Origin: Polyangium spumosum
GTDB taxonomy: Bacteria; Myxococcota_A; Polyangia; Polyangiales; Polyangiaceae
Length of the DNA: 64,000 nt
Assembly: GCF_009649845.1 (NCBI RefSeq)
Contig: NZ_WJIE01000008.1
Coordinates: 310,001 to 374,000 of the forward strand
Reading direction: 5' to 3'
Part shown: positions 33,833 to 58,041 of the stretch, one piece after another
How positions within the stretch are numbered: position 1 is the stretch's first letter
How the letters are laid out: the number at the start of each line of letters is the position of its first letter
Notes under the pieces: model-generated
Databases searched by the model: none
What the model was told of the DNA's origin: nothing
Seen by the model: only the letters and a program-made list of their open reading frames with translations
Made by a program: the position numbers and the translations under genes

Positions 33833-36800
33833 TCAATCCTTCGAGGCGAGGGCCACTTTCACGAGCAGGATGGCCCAGCCTGTATCGATGTAACGCGTCG
33901 AGCCCTTCGACGTGCCTTCCAGGTACCGCAAGCGGTGAACGAGTTCCTCCTGGAGCCGGCGCGGATCTTCGTTCACCTCGGAGAGCGCGGTGAGGACCCA
34001 ACCGATATCCGTGAGCGACACCGTCCGTTCCTCGAATCCACCCGGCCCGCCGTCGATACGCAGTCCACCTCGCTTCGCAGGTCCCACGAGCCGAAATTTC
34101 CTTTCGTCGCGCTCGATGATCGAGCCCACCCCCTTCTTGCGAAGCAGATCCTCGACGAGACGACGAGCCCGATCTTCGACGGATCGAGGCAATGTGCGCG
34201 ATGCCTCCCGGCCCCCTCCCAGCGTACGGAAGGTCGGTAGATCGATTCCCGCGCACGCCCACAGGCCATCCTCCTCGATGAAGCGGGCGACGCCGGCGTA
34301 ACGCCATGTCGCCCCCTCTGGCGCCCGCGTCAGCACGAACGCCGTCTCACCCGGTCGCGGTTCGATGCCCGGGAAACGGATCCGATCCGGCGCCACGAGC
34401 CTTCCCTTCTCCTCGATGAACAGAAACAGGTGACCATCCACCCGTCCGCTCCGTGGAGGCTCCGAGAGGCCGAAGGCTTCCGCAAGCCCTTCATCCTCGA
34501 TGGTCGCGCCGACCGGTGGCCCGAGCGATTCGGGCTTCACCATTTCCACAAGGGCGGCGATGAGCACGGTATCAGCCGTGGCGTCGATGGCGGGGAAAGC
34601 ATGGTTCTCTGATCGCAAGATCCACCGCCCGTCATCCTGAACGACGCGCTTGACCAGATGACTCGCGCCGAGCTGTGAATCCGGCACCTCGACCAGCGCG
34701 ATCTTGCCATGGATCGCTTCCCGGGATTGCCCCCGCGCAAAGCGCAACACGAGCCAGTCGCCATCACGAATGGGCTCCTTGCCGCCATTCATGGATTCGC
34801 CCGTGGCCCGGACAGCGAACAAGCCTTCGCCACGCGCCTTCGTTGGTAACCGGACCTCCTCGCCTTCGGGTGCCAGCGCGATCGGATCCCGAGCGGCTCC
34901 CGCGGCTGCGCGCAGCGTGGGGAAGGCAAGGAGAACACCACGCTCGGAAGCCTCGATTCTCGGCTCATCCGGTTCTACCCACAGGTCACCTCTGGGAGAA
35001 CGGGAGAAACGGACCCGGAAATTCGTCCCGGGCTTTCCCGCGGCCAAGCCGAACCAGCGCCGCATGAGATCCGGCAACTCGTTTCGCTGCGAGCCAAGGG
35101 GACGCGCAACATTGCAGAACTGCTGCTGGAACGAGAACTGCCACGTAACACCGTCCGACAATCGAACGTCCTGAAAACCAAAGGGAAGGTCCGGCCGCTT
35201 TTCGCGGGAGGGAAGCTTCAGGATGGGATCACGCTTGTTCCAGGTGACCTTCGCCGTGAACGAGACGCGGGAAACGTACTCCGTTCGACGCGCGCGGTAC
35301 ATCGCGAGCCGGTAGTCGACGAGTTCACGCACCATGGACGTGAGCGCTTCTTCGGCGCCTGGCGGGCAGGGGATCCGTGAGACGAACCGATCGCCTTCCA
35401 GCGCGAAGAATCGTTTGCCCGGCCCGCTCGTCCAGGCGGCGATCGGGTTCATCCGCCAGTACGCGGTGAACCGGCGCATGTCGGGAGCATGTACATCGGG
35501 GAAATCGGTCACGCCTTCCATATCGCGCAGCAGCTCGGGGGACCGTGCCATGGTGGCGAAACTTCTATGCGCGAGGTCGAGGAGGGGGAGTCCGTCTCGA
35601 AGCGCGTCGGCCTCGAGCAACGCCTCCAGGGTCACCATCTTGTAGCACTTGCTCATGGGGGTGACTTCGAGTTCGCGGAGGAAGTCGCCCGCCACGGCAA
35701 GGACGCGCTTCTCCGCGTCGTCGAGGTCGCCCATGGCGGCCACGAAGTCGAAGAAGCTCCCGTGGGCATCACGGAGACTCTTGAGGCCGTATCCCATGCG
35801 ATATAGCTCGCCTGCGAGGGGCCTTCGCCCCCAGGCCTCACGATGATCGCGGTACGCTTGCTCCGCCGGGCTTCCGCCCTGCGGCGGAAGTAGCTTGACC
35901 AGAAGATCCTTGGCTTCGAGTTCCAGATCGATGGTGCAACCGGGCGCCATTCTCGCGACCTGCTTGCCCTCCAGGAAGTCGCGCAGGCTCGTGGGCTCCG
36001 GGCCGAGTGAGATCAGCGTGCGCACGCGCTCCAGGAAGACGCGGTGATTGCCCACGAAATCCAGGGCGACGAGCCGCGTCTTCCCGTCGGTGGAGCGAAG
36101 ACCACGACCGAGCTGCTGAAGAAAGACGACCGGAGACTCCGTCGGGCGGAGCATCACCACGCGATCGATGGCCGGGATGTCGATACCTTCGTTGAAGAGA
36201 TCGACCGTGCAAAGGGCGTCCAGCGTCCCGTCGAGGAGCCCAGCAATGGCACTCTCACGCGCGGCCGAGGTCGGCCCCGAATGGACGGCGGCCACGCGAA
36301 CGCCCTGCTTCGCGAGGAACGCGCAAGCATGATCGGCGTGGCGGATGGAGCAGCAGAACACGAGCGTGCGCTCGCCCGGATGCTCCTGCCAGGCGCGGAA
36401 CATCCGTTCGAGCCGACCGTCCGTGTCGATGGCCTGTTCGAGCGCCTCGGGATCGAAGCGACGATTGCGGAATGGGATGGCGTCGTAATTCGTATCGTCC
36501 TTCAGCCCGAAGTAGGCGAAGGGCACGAGCAGACCGCGCTGGATCCCCACGCCGATGTCGGCCCGGTAGGCGACGTGGTCGTCGAAGAGCCCCACCACGT
36601 CCGCGCCGTCCGCTCGTTCCGGAGTGGCGGTGAGCCCGAGGAGAAAGCGTGGCTTCAGCCGATCGATGATGCTGCGATAACTCGGCGCGGTGCCGTGGTG
36701 AACCTCGTCGACGATGACATAGTCGAACCCCTCGGGCGCGAGGCGCGCGAGGTGCTCCGGGCGGGAGAGCTTCTGGATGGAGGCGAATACGATGTCGCCT

Positions 36801-38089
36801 CCGAGGTCGTCCTTGTCGCCGACGAACCAACCAAAACGAACGCGCGCATCGCGGAGCTGACGTCGGAAGGTATTCGCTGCCTGCACGAGGAGCTCTTCTC
36901 GGTGAGCGAGAAGAAGAACGCGGGGGCGGTTCCCGTGTACCTTGGCAAAGGCCGCGACATCGAACGCTGCAAGCCACGTCTTGCCGAGGCCCGTCGCCAG
37001 GACACAAAGCGCGCGATTGCGCCCCTCGGCACGCGATTGTGCGAGGGCGGCCAGAGCTTCCCGCTGGATGGGATGCGGATCGGGCGGTAGCGCCTTCGCG
37101 TCGTCGTCTTCCTCGCCGGGAGGCAGGGCGAAGACGGGGGCCTCTCGGGCACGACGTGCATAGTCAGCAATCCAATCGGCCGTGAGCGGGACGGCCGCGG
37201 CCCAACATTGCTCGTAAGCATCGATGATGGCCTGATACGCAACCCGATCGCGGTGACGATCCACGCGAAGGTTCCACTCGACCCCTGTGCGCAGCGCGGT
37301 ATGGGAGAGATTGCTCGATCCGACGAACGCTGCGCCGAAATCAGGCCCCTCGAAACGCCAGGACTTGGGGTGGAAGGAGCGGACGCCTTCGGGCAGGCGC
37401 TCCACTTCGACGATCCGGGCCTCGAAACGTCCGGGGGACGAGCCCTCGGGTGCAATACGTGCTTCCCAGGCGTCCATCCAGTCCCGTAGCTTTGCGAGGG
37501 CCTCGCTCTGGGTGATGTTGAGGTAATCGCCCGTGACGAGTCGGACGCGCGCGCCACGCGAAAGGGCGCCGGAGACATGGGCCTCGAGCAGGCTGACGCC
37601 GCTCTGCTGAACGAACGCTGCGAGGATGGCGATATCGGAGGCTCGCCGGAAGAGAGGATCGATGTGCCGGAGGAACGGGTCGACCTTGCCGCCACGGGTG
37701 AGGGGGTCGGGCCGGTTCTCCAGATAGTTCCCTTTGCCGGGAATGACATGCCGCACGCCGCCGCGCGGGTCGTCGACATCGCCGCGATACCGCGGAATGA
37801 CGTGCACGTGCAGGTGCATGACCGTCTGGCCTGCGGCCTCGCCCGCATTGATGCCGATGTTATAGCCGTCCGGGGAGTGCTCCGCGTCGAGCTTGCGCTT
37901 GACCTCGTCGACGAGCTGGAAGATGGCCGCCTGCTCCTCGGGGGTCGCCTCGAACCAGGTTGCAATGAGCCGGCGCGGGATGACGAGGGTGTGGCCGGGG
38001 CTCACCGGGTAGAGGTCGGGGACCGCGAAGGCGAGGGGATTGCTCGCGATCCAATGGGAAGGCGGGATTCCGAGGAAGGGGGAGGACAC
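33833..38089 (-). CDS. HIT-PLD-helicase-S24 fusion protein, copy 1
   Basis: 1418 aa, GTG start. Domain order: a HIT domain (~1-110) with HLHVHVIPR at 92-100; a PLD-type nuclease (~130-310) with FHPKSW and GSSNLS; a DEAD/DEAH helicase (~335-750) with ATGLGKT, DEVHHG, GLTATPE and QQLGRGLR; a long central region; then a LexA/S24 fold with Ser in GESMNGG (~1098) and Lys in LVKRVV (~1146). The final ~200 residues are unassigned. PLD plus helicase recalls type IV restriction enzymes such as SauUSI and HKD-helicase proteins, so DNA restriction is likely (inference). It has a same-length paralogue at 52222-56478. The gene lies 77 bp after the YYEF-type gene. Confidence 0.9.
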   Translation of the reverse strand: MSSPFLGIPPSHWIASNPLAFAVPDLYPVSPGHTLVIPRRLIATWFEATPEEQAAIFQLVDEVKRKLDAEHSPDGYNIGINAGEAAGQTVMHLHVHVIPRYRGDVDDPRGGVRHVIPGKGNYLENRPDPLTRGGKVDPFLRHIDPLFRRASDIAILAAFVQQSGVSLLEAHVSGALSRGARVRLVTGDYLNITQSEALAKLRDWMDAWEARIAPEGSSPGRFEARIVEVERLPEGVRSFHPKSWRFEGPDFGAAFVGSSNLSHTALRTGVEWNLRVDRHRDRVAYQAIIDAYEQCWAAAVPLTADWIADYARRAREAPVFALPPGEEDDDAKALPPDPHPIQREALAALAQSRAEGRNRALCVLATGLGKTWLAAFDVAAFAKVHGNRPRVLLLAHREELLVQAANTFRRQLRDARVRFGWFVGDKDDLGGDIVFASIQKLSRPEHLARLAPEGFDYVIVDEVHHGTAPSYRSIIDRLKPRFLLGLTATPERADGADVVGLFDDHVAYRADIGVGIQRGLLVPFAYFGLKDDTNYDAIPFRNRRFDPEALEQAIDTDGRLERMFRAWQEHPGERTLVFCCSIRHADHACAFLAKQGVRVAAVHSGPTSAARESAIAGLLDGTLDALCTVDLFNEGIDIPAIDRVVMLRPTESPVVFLQQLGRGLRSTDGKTRLVALDFVGNHRVFLERVRTLISLGPEPTSLRDFLEGKQVARMAPGCTIDLELEAKDLLVKLLPPQGGSPAEQAYRDHREAWGRRPLAGELYRMGYGLKSLRDAHGSFFDFVAAMGDLDDAEKRVLAVAGDFLRELEVTPMSKCYKMVTLEALLEADALRDGLPLLDLAHRSFATMARSPELLRDMEGVTDFPDVHAPDMRRFTAYWRMNPIAAWTSGPGKRFFALEGDRFVSRIPCPPGAEEALTSMVRELVDYRLAMYRARRTEYVSRVSFTAKVTWNKRDPILKLPSREKRPDLPFGFQDVRLSDGVTWQFSFQQQFCNVARPLGSQRNELPDLMRRWFGLAAGKPGTNFRVRFSRSPRGDLWVEPDEPRIEASERGVLLAFPTLRAAAGAARDPIALAPEGEEVRLPTKARGEGLFAVRATGESMNGGKEPIRDGDWLVLRFARGQSREAIHGKIALVEVPDSQLGASHLVKRVVQDDGRWILRSENHAFPAIDATADTVLIAALVEMVKPESLGPPVGATIEDEGLAEAFGLSEPPRSGRVDGHLFLFIEEKGRLVAPDRIRFPGIEPRPGETAFVLTRAPEGATWRYAGVARFIEEDGLWACAGIDLPTFRTLGGGREASRTLPRSVEDRARRLVEDLLRKKGVGSIIERDERKFRLVGPAKRGGLRIDGGPGGFEERTVSLTDIGWVLTALSEVNEDPRRLQEELVHRLRYLEGTSKGSTRYIDTGWAILLVKVALASKD

Positions 38090-38166: not shown

Positions 38167-39309
38167 CTACAGGCCGGCCTTCGAGATCCGAACCATGAGC
38201 GTTGCTTTGCGCGCATGCCGCGCCCGAAAAGCCTGCAGCAACGTCTGGAAGTCGCCCGCTCCCGATCGCGCGGCAAGATCACGAAGGTCCACGAGAACCC
38301 CCACCGCTGCAACGTAGTTCTTGGACTGTTTGGTCGCGACGAGCGTCTCGACATTCAACCAGAGCTGCTTCTCCTTGCCCGCCAGCGCGCCCAGATGCTT
38401 CGCCCGCTCGCGCGCCGCTTGTCGCTGCCGCCGGTCCGCCTCGGCAGCCGCTTTTCGTTCGGCGTTCTGCCTACGCTCCACGGCGTGCCTCTCGGCGATA
38501 CGGCGAATCTCGCCGATGGTTCGTCGTTGCGGCGCCGCCATACTCGTCTTCGCCGGATCGTGGTCCTGCACGAACCGACGATGAAGCTCCGCCGACACGG
38601 ACAGCGTGTCCTCGGCGAACAAGCGGGCGAGCCACGTATCCTTCTCGGCCGGCGGGAGCGTCGCGAGCCAAGCCCTCAGCTCTTTTCGGCCGGGCGATAG
38701 GAGCGACATCTGCGCGCTCGTCTCCGCGGCGGCACGAAGCAGATCCGGGTCGATACGCAGGAACTCGACCAACGCATCGAGCGAAGCGCTGAGTTGCCCC
38801 AGCCCTGGCGGCACGGGCGGCTCCGGCTCCTCATCGTCGAGCTCGTCGGCCTGCACGGCGAGCAACCAGCCGAGGTACAGCGCCCTACGATCGCCGCGAG
38901 CGAGCTCCGCGCGAAGTGCGATCAGAGGAGATAGAATGCCCTCACCGGAGTCCCAATCTTCTCCCTCGTCGTCCTCCGAGGCGAAGGTGAGGACGACCTG
39001 GTCTTTGTTCTTGCGCGCCGTCAGGCTGTTTCTCGAGCAATACGGACGCACATCGGCGAGGTCGAGGACCTTCGAAGGCAGGCGTACTTTGAACACGTGC
39101 GTGCCCCAGTTCGCGAGATACAGGAACGCGTCGAAGTAGCGGAACATCCACGCGTCTTCGTCGCCCTTGAAGTTCCCCCACTCGTAATGGTTGACGAAGC
39201 TCGTTGGCGTGATGCGGGCACGCGTCGAGTACGAACGGAGCTCGGCCATCTCCTTTTCGGTGAGAGATCTATCGATAGCCTGAAATTCATAATACTGATA
39301 CTCACTCAT
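38167..39309 (-). CDS. Conserved hypothetical protein of the YYEFQAIDR type
   Basis: 380 aa. The ATG at 39309 has AGGAGC 7 nt upstream; the longer frame adds unlikely sequence. It starts MSEYQYYEFQAIDRSLTEKE and includes WGNFKGDEDAWMFRYFDAFL and YLANWGTHVFKVRLP. The C-terminal half is a charged coiled-coil (RRQNAERKAAAEADRRQRQ). This is a widely distributed family usually found beside SWIM zinc-finger proteins; no SWIM gene is present here. Function unknown. It is likely co-transcribed with the helicase 77 bp downstream. Confidence 0.8.
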   Translation of the reverse strand: MSEYQYYEFQAIDRSLTEKEMAELRSYSTRARITPTSFVNHYEWGNFKGDEDAWMFRYFDAFLYLANWGTHVFKVRLPSKVLDLADVRPYCSRNSLTARKNKDQVVLTFASEDDEGEDWDSGEGILSPLIALRAELARGDRRALYLGWLLAVQADELDDEEPEPPVPPGLGQLSASLDALVEFLRIDPDLLRAAAETSAQMSLLSPGRKELRAWLATLPPAEKDTWLARLFAEDTLSVSAELHRRFVQDHDPAKTSMAAPQRRTIGEIRRIAERHAVERRQNAERKAAAEADRRQRQAARERAKHLGALAGKEKQLWLNVETLVATKQSKNYVAAVGVLVDLRDLAARSGAGDFQTLLQAFRARHARKATLMVRISKAGL

Positions 39310-39467
39310 TACATTCGCTCCTGCGATGCTGCGATCCAGCCCGGTGCGGGAACCAAGAGCGGCGCCGGGCGCCCCCACGGGATGGGCAACGGGATCGCCG
39401 TGCGGCAGAGGACATCGCGCTCCTGGATCGCATGTTCCGCGCCAAACCGCAAGAAGGGACAAACCTT

Positions 39468-42712: not shown

Positions 42713-44026
42713 TTAATCTGGATCCACAGCGAACCCGAGCGCCTCGATCAGCCGAGAACACGCAGGACCTTTCGCCCCCTCGCGGAGCTCCGCGAGCACC
42801 CTGACGATGGGCAACGAGATTACCAAAAGCTCCGCCGCGGTGACCGTCTGCGCGTCACGCACCAGCACTCGAGCAGGTGGTTCCAGCTTATCCGTCGAGG
42901 CAGGATGTACGAGCAGCGCCCGTCGGGGACATGGATGCCGACCGTGGCCATAGGCATACAGGAACGCCTGGTAGAGATCACCGGTTTCTACGGCACCCGT
43001 CCCGAGCAACTTGTACTTGGCATCGATCGGCAGCAGCAAGCGCTCGCCGTCCGTTCTCTCGACGACGATGTCGGGGACTACGTTGGCGTACGTACGACTC
43101 TCGTCTCCGTTCCACAGTATAGACCCGTTCGACCGCTGGTAACGGACATGGCATGGGCGCCCGGCCAATAGCTCCTCGACGAGCCGCCACACGAAGCGCT
43201 CGAACAGCCGGTTCATGTCCATCATGAAGGCGAAGGAGCTCGTCTCACCGCCACCGATCACGTCGTCGACGCCCAGTCCCTCGAGGATGATGCGCGACAC
43301 CTCATGGGCGTCTCGATAATGCTCGTTCACGCGGTGGTAGCTCATCCCCTCGAGCAACGTCTTGGAATCTACTCCTTCCGTCGAGCAGACCTCCTTGAAT
43401 ACATCATTTGCATGCCGAACTCGTCGACGGACGTTGGGATGGTCCGCCCGCCGCGCGCACGAGGCGAGCGCCAGCGCGAGAAGTTTGTTCTCCGGGATGT
43501 CCTGGTCGCGCTCGTCGAAGCGGCACTCGACACGATCGACACGCCCGTATCGGCGAAGAATCTGGCGATCCACGAGGATCCGACCACGCACTACGCCGAG
43601 GTCCTCTTCCCGCTCGACGTAATCCGAGAGGATGCCTCGCCGGATCACGTGCTCGGACGCCTCGGCGAGAAGAAGCGCGAACAGGTCGAACAGGTGCGTG
43701 CCAGATGCGTCCAGGGATCCAATACCCGCGGTGCGTCGCAGCGCATCGATGCCCGTCGTGCGCTCGATCATCTCCACGAGTCCGTGATGCCCACCAGCCG
43801 CTTTCGGCACGATATGAAGATCAAACTGCTCGAAGCGGACGAGCCCCACCCACGCGAGCGCCCGGACGCGCACCTTGCCTCGCCACACGTCGATCTCGAG
43901 GCGCCTGTCCGCCCCCTTCGCGAGCGCGTCGGCGAGATCCCAGTCTGCGCGCGAGAGCTCCACGCCGTCGATCTCGCGTGACTCCCACTCCTTGATGGTC
44001 ACCACGCAGTGGGGAGCTCGACTCAT
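42713..44026 (-). CDS. mcrC: McrC-like subunit of McrBC restriction system
   Basis: 437 aa. The start overlaps the McrB stop (ATGA), as is usual for mcrBC. The N-terminus is beta-rich (VTIKEWESREIDGVEL); the centre carries VVRGRILVDRQILRR. The C-terminal PD-(D/E)xK nuclease has VVPDIVVE (~317) and LPIDAKYKLL (~337). In the known system McrC supplies the endonuclease subunit cut-activated by McrB translocation on modified DNA. Confidence 0.92.
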   Translation of the reverse strand: MSRAPHCVVTIKEWESREIDGVELSRADWDLADALAKGADRRLEIDVWRGKVRVRALAWVGLVRFEQFDLHIVPKAAGGHHGLVEMIERTTGIDALRRTAGIGSLDASGTHLFDLFALLLAEASEHVIRRGILSDYVEREEDLGVVRGRILVDRQILRRYGRVDRVECRFDERDQDIPENKLLALALASCARRADHPNVRRRVRHANDVFKEVCSTEGVDSKTLLEGMSYHRVNEHYRDAHEVSRIILEGLGVDDVIGGGETSSFAFMMDMNRLFERFVWRLVEELLAGRPCHVRYQRSNGSILWNGDESRTYANVVPDIVVERTDGERLLLPIDAKYKLLGTGAVETGDLYQAFLYAYGHGRHPCPRRALLVHPASTDKLEPPARVLVRDAQTVTAAELLVISLPIVRVLAELREGAKGPACSRLIEALGFAVDPD

Positions 44027-46167
44027 GCACCGCTCTGCGAGGTCGGCGAGAGCGCGAGCCTCAATGCCTCGATCAGGTCGTCGGCCTTCGACAGGTACTC
44101 GTGATTCAGGGTGCGCGCATCAGGGACGAGCTTGTTGCCGATGTACTTCGCCAGCCTGGAATAGTCATCGTAGCAATACTCTTGCAGCAACGGCAGGATG
44201 TCCTGACGGAATCGTCGAGCGAACACCTCCGGATCGTCGATCGCCCGATCGCCGTCGAGGAGGTAGGCATGGCCGATCTGCTTCTCCCGCCCCTCGTTTG
44301 CCGCGATGCGCCTGTTCAGCTCCTCGAGAAATACATCGAGTGCGAGTCCGTTCACGCTCGTGCCCTGAAGGACCTCGGGCTCCGGCATGCACTCGATGAA
44401 GCCGAACCGGCGCCGCAAGGCGGCGTCGAGCAGCTTGATGCTTCGATCGGCCGTGTTCATCGTGCCCAAGATGTAGACATTCGGCGGGATCGCGAAGCTC
44501 TCCTTGCTCTGGGGCAGCGTGATGGTGAGGCCCCGCTTGTCTTTTTCCAGCAGCGTGATGAGCTCGCCGAAGACCTTTGCGAGGTTGGCCCGGTTGATCT
44601 CGTCGACGAGCACGAGAAACCGCCGGCTCGGCTGTGCCGCGGCGTCGCGGCAGATGCGCTTGAAGACGCCATCTTCGAGCTTCAGGCTGAGCGTTCCGGT
44701 CGACGTGGGCGCGGGGCGGAAGCCTTCGATGAAATCCTCGTAGCTGTACGAGGGATGGAACGTCAGGCGAGTCAGCGGAGCGGACCCTGGCTGCTGCTCG
44801 GCGAGGCGTGGGGCCGCGAGGCGTCCCTCCTCGGCCCGGAAGCGCTCGGCATCCGCGAGCACGAGGTGCGCGTCGGCCGCGCCGCTGTGCTGCAATAGCC
44901 ACCACACTGCGAAACGGCGAGCGAGGTAAGTCTTTCCCGTTCCCGGCGGACCATAAAGAATGACTTGCCCCTTGTGCTCCAGCGCTGCGCTGAGCTCAAG
45001 GAAAGTGTCGTCCACCCGCGGGGGAGGCATGGTCGTCGGCGGCCCGCCCTGTTTGCTGATGATGGTCGTGTAGAGCGCCGGCGGTATCGGGTCGACCGTC
45101 GTCAAGCCCCAGCGCGGCTGCGACGGGATGTCCTTCGCATAACTCGTATCCCATTTGACGCGGACGGTGTGCTTGAACTCGGGGCGCTCCGGTCTCAGCT
45201 CGTAGCCCGGCTCGATCACCTGACCGACCGCCAGGACCTTCGACTGCCCCTTGTTCGCGACCACGATATCGCCGGGCTCGAGCTCCATCAACGTCCAGAG
45301 CTCTTTGGCTTTTTGCGTCAGCTTGCTCTTGTTCCCGTTATAGAGAGAAGAAAAACGCTCGCTGAAGGCAGCGCGGAAGGACTCTTTCGAATCATACTCA
45401 CGCAGGTCGCCGACCTCGTCCCAGCCGACGCAGATGTAGCCCCCCTGCAAACACGCCTCCCAGAACTTCGCTTGCTCTCCGGGGGCGATCTTCACGACCA
45501 TTCGCGACTCCCTCGGGTCGGCCCACGTGTAGAGGAAGCTCCCGATCTCCGTGGTCGTCCAGCCGTCGAAGCGACCTCGTTCGCGCAAGGCTGCGAGCAG
45601 CGCTCGATTCAGGCCGACCGTGCGCAGGTTGCCGTCCTCGGCCTCCGGCCGCCCGAGCAGCCGCAGGAAATGGCGCAGGTGCTCCCTGGAGGCGACGTTG
45701 AGAATCTCTTCGGGGAAGTAGACGTGCAGCGCCTTGCACCGAAGGGCGGCCCCGCCTTCGAGCGCACCGAGCTCGTCAATGGCTTGCCAATCACCCATCT
45801 TCGCCAGCTCGAACGCGCGGACGAAGGCCGCGCGCACCTGCTCCCACGCCTCCTCCTCGTCCCGGTACTTCTCGTCGTGGTACCACCCGAGGCTGCCCTT
45901 GCGCTTGTAGATCAGGTGCTTGCTCGCGTTTCCACCTCGAATGCTTCCGAGGGCCGGCGTCCCCCATTCCATCCACCAGCAAAAGCTTTCTTGAGGTTTT
46001 CCCTGCCCCAGGGCGTAGCGCTCGAGGGGCATCGACGGCCAGCGATCGAGCGGGAAGCGATCGAGCATCGCGGAGCGCTGTTGCCGCACAGCAGCGGCGG
46101 CTTCGCTGGTGGAGGATCGGTGGAAGGAGGAAAGCGCCTCCTCGAGAGACGGGCGGGCAGCGTCCAT
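44023..46167 (-). CDS. mcrB: McrB-like GTPase/AAA subunit with EVE/PUA-like reader
   Basis: 714 aa from ATG 46167. Residues ~1-180 are a variable N-terminus. Residues ~210-360 resemble an EVE/PUA-like base-reading fold (FWEACLQGGYICVGWDEVGDL, then GDIVVANKGQSKVLAVG). The AAA+ part has Walker A LYGPPGTGKT (~407), LVDEINRANLAKVFGEL (~525), and the McrB hallmark GTMNTADRSIKLLDAALRRRF (~570-590). It would recognise modified cytosine or similar bases and translocate DNA using GTP. The start lies 34 bp after the nitrilase-NACHT stop, suggesting co-transcription. Confidence 0.92.
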   Translation of the reverse strand: MDAARPSLEEALSSFHRSSTSEAAAAVRQQRSAMLDRFPLDRWPSMPLERYALGQGKPQESFCWWMEWGTPALGSIRGGNASKHLIYKRKGSLGWYHDEKYRDEEEAWEQVRAAFVRAFELAKMGDWQAIDELGALEGGAALRCKALHVYFPEEILNVASREHLRHFLRLLGRPEAEDGNLRTVGLNRALLAALRERGRFDGWTTTEIGSFLYTWADPRESRMVVKIAPGEQAKFWEACLQGGYICVGWDEVGDLREYDSKESFRAAFSERFSSLYNGNKSKLTQKAKELWTLMELEPGDIVVANKGQSKVLAVGQVIEPGYELRPERPEFKHTVRVKWDTSYAKDIPSQPRWGLTTVDPIPPALYTTIISKQGGPPTTMPPPRVDDTFLELSAALEHKGQVILYGPPGTGKTYLARRFAVWWLLQHSGAADAHLVLADAERFRAEEGRLAAPRLAEQQPGSAPLTRLTFHPSYSYEDFIEGFRPAPTSTGTLSLKLEDGVFKRICRDAAAQPSRRFLVLVDEINRANLAKVFGELITLLEKDKRGLTITLPQSKESFAIPPNVYILGTMNTADRSIKLLDAALRRRFGFIECMPEPEVLQGTSVNGLALDVFLEELNRRIAANEGREKQIGHAYLLDGDRAIDDPEVFARRFRQDILPLLQEYCYDDYSRLAKYIGNKLVPDARTLNHEYLSKADDLIEALRLALSPTSQSGA

Positions 46168-46201
46168 GCAACGGCAAGAGAACCGTACGCCGCCGGACGT
46201 G

Positions 46202-49200
46202 TCAAGCCTTCCTGCAATACCCGAGCTGCGCCAATGCTGCCTCGGCGTCGTCACCCGACAGGTCGCCCGCAAGCGCGGCAGTCACCCGTTCGGGCCGATG
46301 AAGCGCTTCTCGGAGCCCGCCCAGCGGGACGTAGAGCCGCGCCCGAGAACCAGGCAGTGGAGCAAATGCGATCCGGAAGTCGTCCGCCGATCCATCCACG
46401 AATTCGCAATATCCGCCGGGCGTGCGCAAGAGCGCTCCGCCCGCGCCTTCCGTGACGGTCACGAGAGGATGGGGGCGACCTGGATCCCAGACGCAGGCCA
46501 CCCCGGCTTCGTCGACGCTCGCGAGGCGGGAGCCGTCGGGGCTCCATTCGAGCAGCCAGACCCGAGCTTCGTGGCTCCGCACGACGCTCTTCACCTCGAG
46601 CGTCTCGCCGTACAGAAACGAGATCCTGCCATCCTCGTGGCCGGCTGCGGCGAATCTTCCTCGTGGTTGGAAGCGGAGGCTCCAGACCTCGCGCAGCCGC
46701 GTTCCTCGACTTCTCGCGTCGCTCCCGGGCGCCCACGCCCACCATTCGTCGTCGTGATCCACGAATAGGATGTCCCCGCCGACCCTGTCCCAATCCCATG
46801 TCCAAACGGTCTTGGCCCGCCGACGCTCGCCCTCCATCGGCGCGTCGTCTCCTCGCCGGAGCAAGGTCAAGCCGAATGGATCGGCGACCGCCAACATCTC
46901 GCCGCTGCTGTCCAGGATCATTCGTGCTGGGGTTCGGTAGCGCTCCCATGGCCAGGAAGCGATCGGCGCCCCCGTCACGGCATCCCAGAGATAGAAACGA
47001 TTGCCAGCCGCCCGAGCTCCTGCCAAGAGCTGATCCTCGTGCCGTATCAGGAGTGGTGCCTGCTCCAGAGCCGGTGACAAAACGCAGGCGGCGCCGAGCG
47101 GCTGGCCGTCGACGTCCCCAATGGCGACGTTCCTGGTTCGTCCCCGACACGCGATACCTCTCGAGGATCGGGCCCAGGAAACGAGATCGAAGGCCCCTCG
47201 TGGCGCCCTCCTCCACGTGGACAATCGTACGCCCCTCTCGTGATCCCAGATCTCCACCGCTGCCCCGAAGGACGCGATCTTCGACTCTTCGTGGGTCCAG
47301 GTCACCCCCGCGGGTCGCTCCGGGCCGGATTCCAAGTCGAAGCGAGAGAGCTCCTGCCGTGCCTCCACGTCCCATACTCGGACGGTGCCGCCGCCGGCGG
47401 AGACCCCAGCGATACGTGCCCCGCTCGGCGAAAAGAACAAGCGCTCGAAGCCGAGCTCGGGCGTGAGCAAAGGGCGAATGACGCGTTTCCTCGACACTTC
47501 CAGGAAATGAAGAAACGAGTCCCCTGCCGAGAAGGCAAGCACGTCGTCGGTCGGGTGGAATGCCATGGATCGAAGAGGAGTCCCCCTCGGATCCGCATGG
47601 AACGTCCACGGCCCTCCCTGCGCAAACGCCCAGACCACCCCGATCCCGCTCGCGTACGAGACCGCGAGGGATCCCCCATTGCGGGAGAACGCCATCTCGA
47701 TCACAGGCGCGTTTATCGAATCGAGCGCCGCGACATCCTCCCCGGAAGACAGGCTTACGACCCGGATGCGCCCATCTTCCTCGGAGACCGCTACCCGTGT
47801 TCCACTCGGGTCGACGGCGATACAGGTAAAGCGCCCGCCGATCGTCTGGAGGGCCTGGAGATCGCGGAGGCGAACCGCTCGCATCGCTCCTTCGGGGTCG
47901 AGCGCGACCACGACATCCGCTGAAGACGCCCAGCGGATGTTGGATTCGTCTTGCGCGGGAAGCGCTGCGGGGAGGTATGCGAGGCAGCGCTGCGTGTGGA
48001 CGTCGAAGACGAAGAGGTCTCCGCGGTGCGTCACCATGGCCAGGCGCCCGCCGTCGGGGCCGAAAGAGACAGACAACAGACGCGCCGGGGCCTCCTTGCT
48101 GGGGACATCGGCGGCAGGCTCGATCCGATCCCATGCGACGTCCGCTGGCGTTGCGCCGGCATCCGCTTCGAGCCCCTCGGAGCCCGGAGCCATCCACGCG
48201 AGCGCGTCCACGCCCTTCAAGGACGCGCCGCCGAAGCGACATCCCACCCACATCGACTGCCGGAGGCACGCGTGATCGAGCCGGGCTCCCTCGAGGGTGG
48301 CTCCAGACGCGGTGACGAGCGTAAAATCGGTTTCTTCGGCCAGCACGCTCCGCAAATTCGCGCTGTCGAGCCGGGCGCCTCGCAAGAGCGCTCCGCGCAG
48401 AGTGGCCCCCTCCAGATTCGCGCCTTCGAGATCGGCGGAGCAGAGGTTCGCCCCATCGAGCTTCGCTGCCACGAGCCGAGCGCTGCGAAGATCTTCGCCC
48501 ACCAGCGATACCCCGCGGAGGCCTGCCTTCTCCGGGATCCAGCCCCCCTTGTCGCCACGGAGCCGCGCGAGCTTCACGAGCAAGCGCACGGCATTCGCTG
48601 CGGCATCCGCGGCCGACGAGGGATCCTGACTACGCGCGGTGCCTCGACCAGCCAGCCAGCGGCGAACGTGATTGACGAATGGCGATCCGAGCAGACCTCG
48701 CTCCCCGACGAGGATCTCGTCAATGAACCCGATCACCTCGCGGGTGAGAGGTTTTACCGAAAGGACTGATGGTAGATCGTGCGGCTCGCTCTCCGCGGCG
48801 TGCACGATGGCAGACGCGAGGAAATATTCTTGAAACGACTTATGCGCGAATCGGAAGCGGTCGCCGGTGTCGGCGGGCTGTCGGACGAGAAACATGCCGC
48901 CCGTCGTCTCGAGTACCTCCGCGGTTCGTGGGACATGGTCGAAGAAGTGCGGAGGGAAGACTTCGTGGAGTAGACGCCGGAGCGTCTCCAGCGCGACACC
49001 AGGCTCTCCGCTCCGCCAGGTTTCAACGGCGATGGTCTCGGCGAGGAGTCGCTTCTGCTCCGTCGTGAAGATCTCCGGCTCCGGGCCGCGCGCCTGCCGG
49101 AGCCAGCGCCGGAGGCAAGCTTCGTAAAGATCGCCGCGGCGCACGACCTGCCCGCCGAGAAGCTCGTTTCGGGTGGCGATGATCATCGCGAGGAGAATGG

Positions 49201-52048: not shown

Positions 52049-52221
52049 GTGCGGGCAGGGTAGCGCATCACGAGGGCGTCCGGCTGCCCGCTCGCGTCGG
52101 TTCTGGGAGGCCTCCCCCGACGAGCACCACCCGATGGATCCAATCCACCTCTCTGCGCCCTCGTCACGCCAAGCCCCAGCGTGAGCCGGTGCGTCGGACG
52201 CCGACGCGGATTGGAACTCGC

Positions 52222-55200
52222 TCAGCCCTTCGTGGCGAGCGCCTCTTTCACGAGCAGGATGGCCCACCCCGTGTCGATGTACCGCGTCGACCCCTTCGAC
52301 GTGCCCTCCAGGTATCGCTGCCGGTGCACGAGCTCCTCGTCGAGCCGGCGAGGGTCATCGTTCACCTCGGAAAGCGCAGCGAGGACCCACCCGATATCCG
52401 TCAGGGATACCGTGCGCTCCTCGAATCCACCGGGCCCGCCGTCGATACGCAGACCACCTCGCTTCGCAGGCCCGACGATCCGGAAGCGCTTTCCTTCCCG
52501 CTCGACGACGGCTCCGGCTCCCTTCTCGTGGAGGAGATCCTCGACAAGACGACGAGCCCGCTCCTCGATGGATCGAGGGAGCGTGCGAGAAGCCTCGCGA
52601 CCTTCCCCGAGTGCCCGAAACGTCGGAAGATCGATTCCCGCACACGCCCAGGCCCCATCGTCCTCCATGAAACGGGCGACGCCTGCATACCGCCATGCCT
52701 CGGAACCGTCGGCCCGCGTCAGCACGAACGCCGTTTCGCCGGGCCGCCGCTCGATGCCGGGGAACCGGATCCGATCCGGCGCCACGAGCCTGCCTTTTTC
52801 TTCGATGAGCAGGAATAGATGCCCGTCGATCCGGCCGGTTCGCGGAGGCCCCGAGATCCCGAACGCCTCCGCGAGCTTTTCCTCCTCGATGGTCGCTCCG
52901 ACCTCGGGTCCGAGCGCTTCGGGCTTGACCACCTCCACAAGCATCGCGATGGGCACCATGTGGGCCGTGGCGTCGATGGCAGGAAAGGCATGGTTCTCCG
53001 AGCGCAAGACCCACCGCGCGTCATCCTGAACGACGCGCTTGACAAGGTAACTCGCACCGAGCTGAGGATCTTGTACTTCGACCAGCGCGATCTTGCCCTT
53101 GATTCCTTCCCGGGACTGCCCCCGTGCAAACCGCATCACGAGCCAGTCTCCATCACGAATGGGCTCCTTGCCGCCGAACATGGAATCGCCCGTCGCGCGT
53201 ACGGCGAACCAGCCTTCTCCACGCGCCTTCGTCGGCAGCCGGACTTGCTCGCCTTCGGGGGCGAGCGCAATCGGGTTCCGGGCCGCCCCCGCGGCTGCGA
53301 GCAGCGTGGGGAACGCGGGGAGCGTGCCCCGAACGGTGCTCGCCGCAGCGCGTGGCTCTTCCGGTTCCACCCAGAGATCACCCTTGGGAGAACGCGAGAA
53401 ACGAATCCGAAAATTCGTCCCGGGGTGCCCCGCAGCCAGGCCAAACCAGCGCCTCAAAAGATCCGGTAGCTCGTTCCGCTGCGATCCAAGGGGGCGCGCA
53501 ACATTGCAGAACTGCTGCTGGAACGAGAACTGCCACGTAACTCCGTCCGGCAGTCGCACGTCCTGAAAACCGGAGGGAAGGTCGGGCCATTGCTCGCGGG
53601 AGGGGAGCTTCAGGATGGGATCACGCTTGTTCCAGGTGACCTTCGCCGTGAACGAGACACCGGAGACGTAGTCGTTTCGCCGCGCGCGGTACATGGCGAG
53701 CCGGTAGTCGACGATCTCACGCACCATGGCCGAAAGTACTTCTTCCGCGCCTGGGGGGCAGGGGATCCGCGAGACGAACCGGTCCCCTTCCAGTGCGAAG
53801 AATCGCTTGCCCGGCCCGCTCGTCCAGGCGGCAATCGGGTTGATCCGCCAGTACGCGGCGAACCGGCGCATGTCCGGGTCATGTACATCGGGGAAATCGG
53901 TCACGCCTTCCAGATCGCGCAGAAGCTCGGGGGACCGTGCCATGATCATATAGCTTCTTCGCGCGAGCTCGGGAACGGCGAGCCCATCCCGAAGCGCATC
54001 GGCCTCGAGCAATGCCTCCAGGGTCACCATCTTGTAGCATTTGCTCATCCGCGTGTCCTCGAGCTCCCGGAGAAACTCCTCGGCCACGTCGAGCACGCGT
54101 TTCTCGACCTCGTCGAGATCACCCATGGCGGCGACGAAATGGTAGAATCCCCCATACGCGTCCCGTATCTTCTTAAGGCCGTAGCCCATGCGATACAGCT
54201 CGCCAGCGAGGGGCCTTTGCCCCCGGACCTCACGAAGATCGCGATACGCCTGCTCTGCCGGGCTTCCGCCCTGCGGCGGGAGCAACTTTGCCAGAAGCTC
54301 CTTGGCTTCGAGCTCGAGGTCGATGATACAGCCAGGGGCCATCCTCGCGGCCTGCTCGTCCTCCAGGAAGTCGCGCAGGCTCGTGGGCTCCGGGCCGAGC
54401 GAGATCAGCGTGCGTACCCGCTCCAGGAACACCCGGTGATTGCCCACGAAATCGAGGACGACGAGGCGCGTCTTCCCATCGGTGGAGCGAAGGCCCCGGC
54501 CGAGCTGCTGAAGAAAGACGACCGGAGACTCCGTCGGGCGGAGCATCACGACGCGGTCGATGGCCGGAATGTCGATGCCTTCGTTGAAGAGGTCCACGGT
54601 GCAGAGCGCGTCGAGCGTCCCATCGACGATCCCCGCAATGGCACCCTCTCGCGACGCCGAGGTCGGACCCGAATGGACGGCGGCCGCGCGAATGCCCTGC
54701 GCCACGAGGAACGCGCAAGCATGGTCGGCGTGGCGAATGGAGCAACAGAAGACGAGCGTGCGCTTCCCTGCATGCTCCTGCCAGGCGCGGAACATCCGTT
54801 CGATCCGAGCGTCCGTGTCGACGGCTTGCTCCAGCGCCTCGGGATCGAAGCGACGATTGCGGAACGGGATGGCGTTGTAATTCGTATCGTCCTTCAGGCC
54901 GAAGTAGGCGAAGGGCACGAGCAGGCCGCGCTGGATCCCCACGCCGATGTCGGCGCGGTAGGCCACGTGGTCATCGAAGAGCCCCGCCACGTCTGCGCCA
55001 TCGGCTCGTTCCGGGGTGGCTGTGAGTCCAAGGAGAAAGCGTGGCTTCAGCCTATCGATGATGCTCCGGTAACTTGGCGCTGTGCCGTGATGGACTTCGT
55101 CGACGATGACGTAGTCGAACCCATCGGTGGCGAGGCGCGCGAGGTGCTCCGGGCGAGAGAGCTTCTGGATGGACGCGAGGACGAGGTCTCCTTCGAGGTC

Positions 55201-56478
55201 GCCCTTGTCGCCGACGAACCATCCAAAGCGAACGCGTGCATCGCGGAGCTGACGTCGAAAGGTACTTGCTGCTTGCAGGAGCAGCTCTTCTCGGTGAGCG
55301 AGAAGAAGAACGCGGGGGCGTTTGCCGTGTACCTCGCCGAAAGCCGCGACATCGAACGCCGCGAGCCATGTCTTGCCGAGGCCCGTCGCCAGGACACAGA
55401 GCGCGCGATTGCGCCCGGCGGCACGTGACCGTGCGAGGGCGGCCAGAGCTTCCCGCTGGATGGGGTGCGGCTGGGGCGGCGGCGCCTTCGACTCGTCATC
55501 TTCCTCTCCCGGGGGTAGCGTGAAGACAGGCGTCTCTCGGGCCCGCCGTGCATAGTCTGCGACCCAATCGGCCGTGAGCGGAATGGCGGCGGTCCACCAC
55601 TGCTCGTAAGCATCGACGATGGCCTGATACGCAGCTCGGTCACGGTGACGGTCCACGCGAACGTTCCACTCGACGCCCGTGCGCAGCGCGGCATGCGAAA
55701 GATTGCTCGATCCGACGAAAGCTGCGCCGAAGTTAGGGCCCTCGAAACGCCATGACTTGGGGTGGAAGGACCGGACGCCCTCGGGTAAGCGCACCCCTTC
55801 GACGATCCGGGCCTCGAAGCATCCGGGGGACGAGCCATCCGCAGTGATGCGTGCCTCCCAGGTGTCCATCCAGTCACGGAGCTTTGCGAGGGCCTCGCTC
55901 TGGGTGATGTTGAGGTAATCGCCCGTGATGAGTCGGACGCGGGCGCCGCGCGAGAGGGCGCCGGCGACATGGGCCTCGAGCAAGCTGACGCCGCTCTGCT
56001 GAACGAACGCCGCGAGAATGGCGATATCCGTGGCTCGCCGGAAGAGGGGATCGATGTGCCGGAGAAATGGGTCGACCTTGCCGCCACGGGTGAGGGGATC
56101 GGGCCGCTGTTCCAGGTAATTGCCTTTGCCTGGGATGACGTGCCGCACGCCGCCGCGGGGATCGTCGACGTCGCCGCGATAACGAGGGATGACGTGCACG
56201 TGCATGTGCATGACGGTCTGCCCTGCGGCTTCACCTGCATTGATACCGATGTTGTAGCCGTCCGGGGAGAGCTCCGCGTCGATCTTGCGCTTGACCTCGT
56301 CGACGAGCTGGAAGATGGCCGCCTGCTCCTCGGGTGTCGCATCGAACCAGGTCGCGATGAGCCGGCGCGGGATGACGAGGGTGTGACCGGGGCTCACCGG
56401 GTAGAGGTCGGGGACCGCGAACGCGAGGGCGTTGCTTGCGAGCCAGGACGACGATGAAATCTCCAGGAACGGGGACAC
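52222..56478 (-). CDS. HIT-PLD-helicase-S24 fusion protein, copy 2
   Basis: 1418 aa, GTG start, the same length and domain order as copy 1 with most residues identical. HIT with HMHVHVIPR, PLD with FHPKSW/GSSNLS, helicase with ATGLGKT/DEVHHG, S24 with GDSMFGG and LVKRVV are all intact. Differences cluster in the first 20 residues, the linker at ~330 and the region around residue 1060. Conservation of every catalytic motif in both copies argues that both are functional. It is the first gene of a minus-strand run continuing into nitrilase-NACHT (173 bp gap), McrB and McrC. Confidence 0.9.
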   Translation of the reverse strand: MSPFLEISSSSWLASNALAFAVPDLYPVSPGHTLVIPRRLIATWFDATPEEQAAIFQLVDEVKRKIDAELSPDGYNIGINAGEAAGQTVMHMHVHVIPRYRGDVDDPRGGVRHVIPGKGNYLEQRPDPLTRGGKVDPFLRHIDPLFRRATDIAILAAFVQQSGVSLLEAHVAGALSRGARVRLITGDYLNITQSEALAKLRDWMDTWEARITADGSSPGCFEARIVEGVRLPEGVRSFHPKSWRFEGPNFGAAFVGSSNLSHAALRTGVEWNVRVDRHRDRAAYQAIVDAYEQWWTAAIPLTADWVADYARRARETPVFTLPPGEEDDESKAPPPQPHPIQREALAALARSRAAGRNRALCVLATGLGKTWLAAFDVAAFGEVHGKRPRVLLLAHREELLLQAASTFRRQLRDARVRFGWFVGDKGDLEGDLVLASIQKLSRPEHLARLATDGFDYVIVDEVHHGTAPSYRSIIDRLKPRFLLGLTATPERADGADVAGLFDDHVAYRADIGVGIQRGLLVPFAYFGLKDDTNYNAIPFRNRRFDPEALEQAVDTDARIERMFRAWQEHAGKRTLVFCCSIRHADHACAFLVAQGIRAAAVHSGPTSASREGAIAGIVDGTLDALCTVDLFNEGIDIPAIDRVVMLRPTESPVVFLQQLGRGLRSTDGKTRLVVLDFVGNHRVFLERVRTLISLGPEPTSLRDFLEDEQAARMAPGCIIDLELEAKELLAKLLPPQGGSPAEQAYRDLREVRGQRPLAGELYRMGYGLKKIRDAYGGFYHFVAAMGDLDEVEKRVLDVAEEFLRELEDTRMSKCYKMVTLEALLEADALRDGLAVPELARRSYMIMARSPELLRDLEGVTDFPDVHDPDMRRFAAYWRINPIAAWTSGPGKRFFALEGDRFVSRIPCPPGAEEVLSAMVREIVDYRLAMYRARRNDYVSGVSFTAKVTWNKRDPILKLPSREQWPDLPSGFQDVRLPDGVTWQFSFQQQFCNVARPLGSQRNELPDLLRRWFGLAAGHPGTNFRIRFSRSPKGDLWVEPEEPRAAASTVRGTLPAFPTLLAAAGAARNPIALAPEGEQVRLPTKARGEGWFAVRATGDSMFGGKEPIRDGDWLVMRFARGQSREGIKGKIALVEVQDPQLGASYLVKRVVQDDARWVLRSENHAFPAIDATAHMVPIAMLVEVVKPEALGPEVGATIEEEKLAEAFGISGPPRTGRIDGHLFLLIEEKGRLVAPDRIRFPGIERRPGETAFVLTRADGSEAWRYAGVARFMEDDGAWACAGIDLPTFRALGEGREASRTLPRSIEERARRLVEDLLHEKGAGAVVEREGKRFRIVGPAKRGGLRIDGGPGGFEERTVSLTDIGWVLAALSEVNDDPRRLDEELVHRQRYLEGTSKGSTRYIDTGWAILLVKEALATKG

Positions 56479-56685: not shown

Positions 56686-58041
56686 ATGGCGCGGAAGACG
56701 CTCCGGGCAGAGGCAGTCCCCTTCGGCTGGGTGGAGATCTCCGACGCCGCCCTGCAGCGACTCCGTCGCGAGCTGGAGCAGAAGGGGCAAGGGGTGGTGG
56801 ACGAGATGGGCGTGCTCGCGATCCACACCGGGTACGCGGACCACTTCTTTCCGGGCACCTCGGTGCTCCAGACCCGTGCGCGCTACCTCTTTTTCGTATG
56901 CTGGAACTTCCTCTGGCTGGCCCGCCAGCGCGGCATCACGGCGGCGAACCTCGCCAAGCGCAAGGACGAAGCAGATCTTTGGGTGACCCGCAACCTCGTC
57001 GCGACCCAGAAACCGGCCGCATCCCCGGGGGGGACCGGACCCGACATGCAGGGCATCATCGGTGTGAACGTGTTTTACGAGAAACCACCGCGACTCCCAG
57101 CGCAGCGGGTGGACTTCGTCTACTGGACGGCCCTCCGGCGGTGGGGCTTCTACCGCAGCCGTACCGCGTACGATCGCGCGCAGCTGTTCCGTCGCTGGCG
57201 CGGGGCTGCTATCGGTCGGGTTGGCGAGGCCGTGGACGAGGGCCAGGACGACACGATTCGCGCCGAGCGGCTAGCGGAGTTCATGGTTCCGACAGCCCCG
57301 ACCGATTGGCAAAAAGAAGAGTGCAGCGGGCTCACCTTCGAATTGACTGGTCCGGAGGCTCGCTGGCTGCAAGAGCGGCTCCTTTCGCTCGACGAGGTCG
57401 CCGAGGGCCCGCGTCTCCTCGCAAAGGCGGCCGAGCTCTGCGCGCAGACACCACCTCGCATGGACCCCGACGCGCGTCCCTGGGATGATCCGCTCGCCGT
57501 GGAAGCGGCAAGAGCCGCCCGGCAATCCGACCGCCTGGAGCGCGCGCGCCAGGCATCGGCGCTCGCGTACTACGTTCGCGCGATTTACGGGGCGCTCGTC
57601 GAGTGGGTCGTCGAAGTCACCGCCCGAACACACCGCGATGTTCCGCTCCGCCATTACCGTGATCGGCTCGCTGACCTCGCCGGCAACCGCAGTGTGCGTG
57701 ACGCATCCCTCGCGATGTCGCTGCCGGACCTTTATACGGACGTGCCGCGGATCCCCAGCCGCTTGCGCCGCGCCCTGGAGCACGTGCAGGGGGGCCTCCG
57801 CAGGATCGCGCAGGGCGAGGACGCCGAGGCGGTCTTCATGAACGAAGACACGCACCGCCTGTTCGAGGCTGTCGAGCGCGACCGGAAAGGGGCGCGGGCG
57901 CGCCTCACACGCACCGACCAGGGGGCAGCGCGACGGGTGGGATTCGGGCCCGACACCGTCGGCGTGTACGATCTCGACTACCGCTGGGGCCGGGTGCGCT
58001 CTCTGCTGTGGGATCTCCACCGGGGCCTCGCACGCCCATGA
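56686..58041 (+). CDS. DUF6361-like protein, first gene of helicase operon
   Basis: 451 aa from ATG 56686. The start pattern FGWVEISDAALQRLR, then HFFPGTSVLQTRARYLFFV, matches the DUF6361 group (WVDFSE..., FPGTSTIQTRARYFLF). No catalytic motif is evident. The rest is helical, with Trp/Arg-rich segments. It overlaps the PLD gene by ATGA. Members are seen beside PLD and helicase genes in defence islands; the role within the complex is unknown. Confidence 0.82.
   Translation: MARKTLRAEAVPFGWVEISDAALQRLRRELEQKGQGVVDEMGVLAIHTGYADHFFPGTSVLQTRARYLFFVCWNFLWLARQRGITAANLAKRKDEADLWVTRNLVATQKPAASPGGTGPDMQGIIGVNVFYEKPPRLPAQRVDFVYWTALRRWGFYRSRTAYDRAQLFRRWRGAAIGRVGEAVDEGQDDTIRAERLAEFMVPTAPTDWQKEECSGLTFELTGPEARWLQERLLSLDEVAEGPRLLAKAAELCAQTPPRMDPDARPWDDPLAVEAARAARQSDRLERARQASALAYYVRAIYGALVEWVVEVTARTHRDVPLRHYRDRLADLAGNRSVRDASLAMSLPDLYTDVPRIPSRLRRALEHVQGGLRRIAQGEDAEAVFMNEDTHRLFEAVERDRKGARARLTRTDQGAARRVGFGPDTVGVYDLDYRWGRVRSLLWDLHRGLARP

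What the first reader, a model, noticed from the sequence alone, without database searches (positions are those of the whole stretch)
33833..38089. Fusion of HIT, PLD, helicase and LexA-like S24 domains
PLD plus helicase suggests modification-dependent restriction. The HIT domain (nucleotide hydrolase/transferase) and the S24 domain with Ser-Lys dyad are unusual partners. Self-cleavage triggered by DNA damage or RecA, as in LexA or UmuD, could switch the enzyme on or release the C-terminal part.
Basis: partly seen in the sequence, partly recalled or inferred. Interest (0 to 1): 0.75.

Follow-up and report, generated by a model that had tools for sequence, protein, structure and literature searches.

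The report
Restriction enzyme with built-in self-cutting switch
This bacterial gene encodes a predicted DNA-destroying defence enzyme whose DNA motor is joined to its DNA-reading end through a module that looks fully equipped to cut itself, as the DNA-damage sensor LexA does, so DNA damage may directly switch the enzyme's activity.

Summary
Window 33833-38089(-) is a 1418-aa ORF: HIT, PLD nuclease, SF2 helicase, helical coupler, B3-like domain (predicted), LexA-type S24 domain, and a compact SRA-like C-terminal region (weak fold evidence). A paralogue 87% identical lies at 52222-56478(-). The core resembles the type IV restriction enzyme SauUSI (PDB 7clg, E 2e-73; PADLOC mREase_IV, E 4e-89).

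In 51 S24 domains of the family the scissile pair A/C-G is kept in 50, the serine in 49, and the lysine in 45 of 49 scorable. These are among the most conserved columns. The predicted S24 fold matches lambda CI and LexA, including RecA-filament complexes (Z 15-16). Where a reader domain follows S24, the predicted cut lies between motor and reader.

HIT is part of the family core. Relatives without S24 often have a neighbouring SprT-like protease gene, never both, but phylogeny leaves that association untested.

Best reading: a SauUSI-like nuclease with an in-cis, probably RecA-stimulated self-cleavage switch, more likely a fail-safe off-switch. Cleavage, trigger, direction and substrate are inferred. 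I found no description of this architecture in the papers searched.

The parts
33833..38089 (-). whole gene, 1418 aa: HIT-PLD-SF2 helicase-coupler-B3-like-S24-SRA-like/C-terminal region
37784..38062 (-). HIT domain (residues 10-102), triad HLHVH at 37802-37816 intact
   Evidence: Pfam HIT E 4.9e-24; the three His invariant in 24 relatives; codons checked
37160..37672 (-). PLD-type nuclease (about residues 140-310), catalytic HPK at 37364-37372
   Evidence: PLDc_2 weak; motif invariant in relatives; SauUSI and mREase_IV match
36005..37087 (-). SF2 helicase-like ATPase (about residues 335-695): GLGKT, DEVHH, LTATP, QQLGRG
   Evidence: ResIII and Helicase_C; motifs aligned
35285..35992 (-). alpha-helical coupler (about residues 700-935)
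   Evidence: AlphaFold model mostly helical here; SauUSI has a helical coupler in the same place (PMC7913695)
34955..35272 (-). predicted B3-like DNA-binding domain (residues 940-1045)
   Evidence: VIA Z about 7 to plant B3 domains and 6.8 to NgoAVII R-protein 4rct; no sequence-level hit
34898..34903 (-). predicted scissile bond Ala1063-Gly1064
   Evidence: A/C-G in 50 of 51 S24 domains; codons checked
34526..34942 (-). LexA/UmuD/CI-type S24 self-cleavage domain
   Evidence: Pfam Peptidase_S24 E 2.5e-11; VIA Z 16.4 to 8gmu, about 15 to LexA
34793..34795 (-). predicted nucleophile Ser1099
   Evidence: Ser in 49 of 51
34649..34651 (-). predicted general base Lys1147
   Evidence: Lys in 45 of 49, Arg in 4
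34235..34507 (-). compact SRA-like domain (residues 1195-1285), candidate modified-base reader
   Evidence: AlphaFold pLDDT 92.7; best VIA matches are SRA or SRA-like, Z 4.4-5.9, below the reliable range; weak collinear profile match to DUF3427, E 0.06
33836..34204 (-). C-terminal alpha/beta region (residues 1296-1418), no known relative found
52222..56478 (-). paralogue, 1418 aa, 87% identical, same domains; scissile AG, Ser and Lys all present

Best explanation
The gene encodes an ATP-dependent, SauUSI-like nuclease that very probably acts against invading DNA. A PLD nuclease (as in SauUSI, expected to work as a dimer) is driven by an SF2 translocase, and B3-like and SRA-like domains contact and read the DNA. 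A LexA-type S24 domain sits at the coupler/reader junction. The most likely trigger is the RecA-ssDNA filament that forms when host DNA is broken, including breaks the enzyme itself makes. Shown: architecture, conservation, predicted fold. Inferred: cleavage, RecA trigger, off direction, target. Rough odds: self-cleaves 0.75; RecA or ssDNA stimulated if it cleaves 0.65; off rather than on 0.6. The confidence figure is for the whole chain, a little above the product of these odds because the steps are not independent.
For: Similarity to SauUSI (7clg, E 2e-73) and PADLOC mREase_IV (E 4e-89). The S24 model matches lambda CI bound to RecA (8gmu, Z 16.4), LexA bound to RecA (8gms, Z 14.9) and the hyper-cleavable CI fragment that contains its cleavage site, with aligned ranges that include the cleavage-site region. 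Scissile A/C-G 50/51, Ser 49/51, Lys 45/49; these columns are among the most conserved of the domain. P1 is Ala in 36 and Cys in 14; Ala is the P1 residue of E. coli LexA and Cys that of UmuD (general knowledge). In L058 the scissile pair, Ser and Lys are all lost together, as if they work as one unit, while its genome-mate L059 keeps all three. Where a reader follows S24, of the CT or the DUF3427 type, the cut lies between motor and reader. SauUSI's reader activates its ATPase (PMC7913695). Defence-island setting: McrBC-like pair, NACHT-WD40 protein, complete Azaca set. Patchy distribution: 39/377, 11/392, 6/347, 1/240, 6/299 and 4/296 genomes in six phyla (query part and threshold differ between the first and the others). 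Precedent for proteolytic control of restriction: ClpXP on HsdR (PMC11109961).
Against: No cleavage data. No SOS box found: the myxobacterial consensus I recalled has no exact match in the whole genome and no site near either gene, so the motif itself may be wrong for this organism. A planctomycete subgroup ends with S24 and has no reader after it, so cutting there cannot remove a reader. Three gammaproteobacterial members have Arg for Lys. The LexA-like IrvR self-cleaves without RecA (PMC7101444). [quoted passage not shown] The SRA-like call rests on Z under 6.
Confidence: 0.4

Rival explanations
1. On-switch. The intact protein is held inactive by the S24 part; RecA-triggered self-cleavage frees a complete HIT-PLD-motor-B3 nuclease, as UmuD cleavage activates UmuD'. 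Runaway cutting would then act as abortive infection.
For: The N-terminal product is the same in all S24 architectures and keeps nuclease, motor and B3-like domain. In the planctomycete subgroup only the S24 domain is removed. UmuD is the precedent (general knowledge).
Against: In most S24 members the cut removes a putative reader that, in SauUSI, activates the motor.
Confidence: 0.22
2. Constitutive maturation. S24 cuts itself without RecA soon after synthesis and the two pieces stay together, or the reader is released as routine processing.
For: IrvR autocleaves constitutively and without RecA (PMC7101444). All cleavage residues are present.
Against: Most known LexA-like proteins need RecA, and the predicted fold is closest to CI and LexA, including their RecA complexes.
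Confidence: 0.13
3. DNA-repair machine rather than restriction enzyme. HIT (aprataxin-like), PLD (TDP1-like), a helicase and, in relatives, a SprT-like protease recall factors that clean DNA ends and DNA-protein crosslinks; S24 would link it to the SOS response.
For: HIT is conserved with its triad. SprT-like neighbours occur in relatives without S24.
Against: Much closer to SauUSI than to repair enzymes, patchy distribution, DUF3427/SRA-like readers, defence-island setting, and repeated pairing with a full SauUSI-like gene.
Confidence: 0.1
4. S24 is a non-cleaving structural or dimerisation domain.
For: S24 domains dimerise in LexA and CI (general knowledge). L182-184 carry Arg for Lys and L058 has lost all catalytic parts.
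Against: The cleavage-site and catalytic residues, not just fold residues, are among the most conserved columns.
Confidence: 0.08

Closest known systems
SauUSI (Staphylococcus aureus type IV restriction enzyme, PDB 7clg)
   Same: PLD nuclease, SF2 ATPase, helical coupler and C-terminal reader in the same order; sequence match E 2e-73 over residues 225-684
   Different: SauUSI has no HIT, no B3-like domain and no S24; its reader is a full DUF3427/SRA domain, here replaced by a compact SRA-like region
LexA / UmuD / lambda CI self-cleaving S24 domain
   Same: fold (Z 12-16), A/C-G scissile pair, Ser-Lys dyad
   Different: fused inside a 1418-aa nuclease-translocase rather than to a repressor or polymerase subunit; cleavage not demonstrated
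CglI / NgoAVII ATP-dependent restriction enzymes
   Same: nuclease protein with a B3-type DNA-binding domain working with a helicase-like ATPase
   Different: two separate proteins plus a methyltransferase; no HIT, S24 or SRA-like part
Restriction alleviation of EcoKI by ClpXP
   Same: proteolysis of a translocating restriction enzyme as protection from self-damage (PMC11109961)
   Different: an outside protease and SOS-independent; here the protease would be part of the enzyme
Azaca ZacB
   Same: weak shared PLD region; Azaca lies next to the paralogue
   Different: a three-gene system without HIT or S24

Membership tests
SauUSI-type (type IV, PLD-helicase) restriction enzymes | PLD nuclease motif HxK...GSxN | tested here: met
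   HPK and GSSN invariant in 24 relatives; PLDc_2 alone is below cut-off in this protein
SauUSI-type (type IV, PLD-helicase) restriction enzymes | SF2 helicase-like ATPase motifs after the nuclease | tested here: met
SauUSI-type (type IV, PLD-helicase) restriction enzymes | alpha-helical coupler after the ATPase | tested here: met
   AlphaFold model, residues about 690-930 mostly helical; prediction only
SauUSI-type (type IV, PLD-helicase) restriction enzymes | C-terminal SRA (DUF3427) target recognition domain | tested here: inconclusive
   no Pfam hit; predicted SRA-like by VIA Z 4.4-5.9 and profile E 0.06; true DUF3427 present in relatives such as L066
SauUSI-type (type IV, PLD-helicase) restriction enzymes | ATP-dependent cleavage of modified DNA | not testable with these tools
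   needs purified protein
LexA/UmuD/CI self-cleaving proteins (S24) | S24 fold | tested here: met
LexA/UmuD/CI self-cleaving proteins (S24) | Ala/Cys-Gly scissile bond upstream of the serine | tested here: met
   Ala1063-Gly1064, Gly 35 residues before Ser1099; 50 of 51 relatives
LexA/UmuD/CI self-cleaving proteins (S24) | Ser-Lys catalytic dyad | tested here: met
   Ser 49/51, Lys 45/49
LexA/UmuD/CI self-cleaving proteins (S24) | RecA-stimulated self-cleavage | not testable with these tools
   needs purified protein and RecA
HIT superfamily | H-phi-H-phi-H-phi-phi triad | tested here: met
   HLHVHVI at residues 92-98; triad His invariant in 24 relatives
B3 DNA-binding domains | B3 fold | tested here: inconclusive
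   many B3 matches at Z 6-7, below the reliable range, in a multidomain model; no sequence match

The most novel reading that the evidence does not exclude
A widespread class of restriction enzymes carries its own damage-sensing protease: a LexA-type module that RecA filaments cause to cut itself, switching DNA shredding, with an SprT-like protease taking that role in trans in relatives that lack S24. That would couple the DNA-damage signal to restriction without transcription.
Probability: 0.3. Interest if true: 0.85.

Novelty: new variant of a known kind. Interest (0 to 1): 0.7.

Why it matters
How nucleases that shred DNA are kept from killing their own cell is an open question for type IV systems, which have no protective methyltransferase. 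A self-cleavage switch inside the enzyme would be a direct answer, would link RecA to restriction after translation, and would be testable with one purified protein and three point mutants. It would also extend LexA-type control from repressors and UmuD to a defence enzyme.

Tried and rejected
SOS box: the myxobacterial consensus (recalled from memory) and a CTGT-N-ACAG pattern gave nothing near either gene and chance-level counts overall; uninformative rather than negative. Mobile-element origin: four partial plasmid matches, and phage matches to PLD-helicase or helicase parts, none covering 80% of the query. Mutual exclusion of S24 and SprT: 0 of 43 against 8 of 33, but independent pairs on the tree have no power (p = 1), so it is reported as suggestive only. 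Known family for residues 1296-1418: none found by sequence or fold; not proof of a new fold. B3-like profile against PDB sequences: none. Conserved gene neighbours of the window gene: none convincing; relatives show SauUSI-like and SprT-like neighbours. Literature: no paper found that describes the S24 or HIT fusion, but the library lacks most subscription journals.
Full report
OBSERVATION. The ORF 33833-38089(-) is 1418 aa and holds HIT, ResIII/Helicase_C and Peptidase_S24 domains above Pfam cut-offs, with PLDc_2 below its cut-off in this protein. The PLD assignment is secured by the family motif HPK...GSSN...EWN, invariant in 24 relatives, and by matches to SauUSI (PDB 7clg, E 2e-73, residues 225-684) and PADLOC mREase_IV (E 4e-89, residues 150-731). 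That 7clg is SauUSI is my reading of the entry (a 953-aa 'Putative helicase', the length given for SauUSI in PMC7913695). The predicted catalytic residues are Ser1099 and Lys1147, with a LexA-like Ala1063-Gly1064 in front.

A SECOND COPY. A search of the genome with the S24 family found a second hit in the window, 52222-56478(-), again 1418 aa, 87% identical, with the same domains and catalytic residues. Between the copies lie a McrBC-like pair (42713-46272) and a NACHT-pentapeptide-WD40 protein (46202-52267); beyond the second copy is a complete Azaca set, ZacA/B/C (56686-63151). dN/dS between the copies is 0.14 overall and 0.09-0.16 in every domain, S24 included, so both are under purifying selection.

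ANATOMY. AlphaFold on residues 690-1418 (20 sequences, pLDDT 84, pTM 0.53) shows a helical coupler (about 690-930), a beta domain (940-1045) and the S24 domain. Foldseek and VIA place the S24 domain with lambda CI bound to RecA (8gmu, Z 16.4), LexA (Z about 15) and UmuD' (Z about 12), with aligned ranges that include the cleavage-site region. The beta domain matches plant B3 domains and the NgoAVII R-protein at Z about 7; this is below the reliable range, although nearly all rows covering that part are B3 domains. A separate model of the last 224 residues (pLDDT 92.7, pTM 0.85) finds SRA or SRA-like domains as its best matches (ScoMcrA, PvuRts1I, SUVH6, SUVH5, UHRF1/Np95), at Z 4.4-5.9 only; Foldseek alone gives nothing significant. 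A profile comparison with the DUF3427 regions of relatives aligns collinearly but weakly (E 0.06). I therefore call it SRA-like, not SRA. Residues 1296-1418 have no relative that I could find.

FAMILY. Profile searches over loci from the genome search and genome contigs show a HIT-PLD-helicase-B3 core with changing C-termini: S24 plus CT (myxobacteria, some planctomycetes and at least one genome of the acidobacterial set), S24 plus DUF3427 (for example Mycolicibacterium, some Myxococcales), S24 at the end (planctomycetes), DUF3427 without S24, and others. Members in the Pseudomonadota set (L182-184) lack HIT; one (L182) has what looks like a methyltransferase in its place. In several other genomes a stand-alone HIT gene lies next to a PLD-helicase gene (L112, L124, L132, L139, L149, L151), so the fusion reflects a wider partnership. 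A full SauUSI-like gene (PLD-helicase-DUF3427) is adjacent in six loci (L051, L064, L067, L080, L087, L172), in convergent, divergent and tandem arrangements.

CONSERVATION TEST. In 51 aligned S24 domains: Gly1064 50/51; P1 residue Ala 36, Cys 14, Thr 1; Ser1099 49/51; Lys1147 45/49, Arg in the other four. These columns rank among the best conserved of the domain. The exceptions are informative. L058 has lost the scissile pair, Ser, Lys and also the HIT triad, while its genome-mate L059 keeps the S24 parts. L182-L184, which lack HIT, have Arg for Lys. L093 looks like a degraded gene. That S24 activity seems to fade where HIT is gone is an observation on few lineages.

SPRT NEIGHBOURS. In nine loci without S24 (L071, L099, L105, L106, L107, L109, L176, L178, L179) a gene directly upstream, often overlapping, encodes an SprT-like metallopeptidase (Pfam E about 1e-16 for the three scanned; the others by a local profile). 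No S24 member has one: 0 of 43 against 8 of 33 on the tree. All SprT cases fall in one S24-less clade, and the independent-pairs test has no power. The idea that proteolysis is a constant element of the system, in cis or in trans, is attractive but untested. In L088 a separate ORF for the catalytic part of an S24 domain follows the main gene; it resembles the planctomycete type and may be a remnant of domain exchange.

MECHANISM. In SauUSI the C-terminal reader recognises modified DNA and that activates the motor (PMC7913695). Here the predicted cut lies between motor/B3 and S24/reader, so self-cleavage would uncouple them. I favour an off-switch driven by RecA filaments: a nuclease that makes breaks would produce the very signal that disarms it. 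Proteolytic disarming of a translocating restriction enzyme has a precedent in ClpXP on HsdR, although that is not an SOS function (PMC11109961). An on-switch like UmuD remains possible, and fits the planctomycete members, where only S24 itself is removed. RecA-independent cleavage also has a precedent in IrvR (PMC7101444). HIT function is unknown; nucleotide or adenylated-end hydrolysis is a guess.

LIMITS. Everything about cleavage, trigger, direction and substrate is inference. The SOS-box search relied on a motif from memory and proves nothing. Several contigs are metagenome-derived and some genes are cut or frameshifted. Tree supports are SH-aLRT from a short search. Domain profiles used to sort architectures were built from the family itself, so faint or divergent S24 domains may be missed. 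The literature library is incomplete.

Noticed in passing
window 52222-56478(-): Second copy of the same gene, 87% identical, in the same defence island.
   Followed up: yes
window 56686-63151(+): Complete Azaca defence set: ZacA (E 6e-71), ZacB (8e-94), ZacC (4e-240).
   Followed up: partly
window 42713-46272(-): McrBC-like pair: McrBC-family protein (Pfam E 4e-47) and an AAA_5 ATPase protein.
   Followed up: partly
window 46202-52267(-): 2021-aa protein with a weak NACHT match, pentapeptide repeats and WD40 propellers.
   Followed up: no
L071, L099, L105, L106, L107, L109, L176, L178, L179: SprT-like metallopeptidase gene directly upstream of relatives that lack S24.
   Followed up: partly
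L182:3244-7101: Relative whose N-terminus looks like a SAM methyltransferase in place of HIT, followed by PLD-helicase-S24-DUF3427 with Arg for the catalytic Lys.
   Followed up: partly
L112, L124, L132, L139, L149, L151: Stand-alone HIT genes beside PLD-helicase genes.
   Followed up: partly
L051, L064, L067, L080, L087, L172: Full SauUSI-like gene next to the HIT-PLD-helicase-S24 gene, in different orientations.
   Followed up: partly
L088:13564-13923: Separate ORF holding only the catalytic part of an S24 domain, just after a relative that otherwise lacks S24.
   Followed up: partly
L086 and L093 (Sorangium cellulosum): HIT joined to or overlapping C-terminal remnants, apparently degraded copies of the gene.
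   Followed up: no
window 38167-39462(-): 431-aa ORF of unknown family, about 77 bases upstream on the same strand; may share a transcript with the gene.
   Followed up: no
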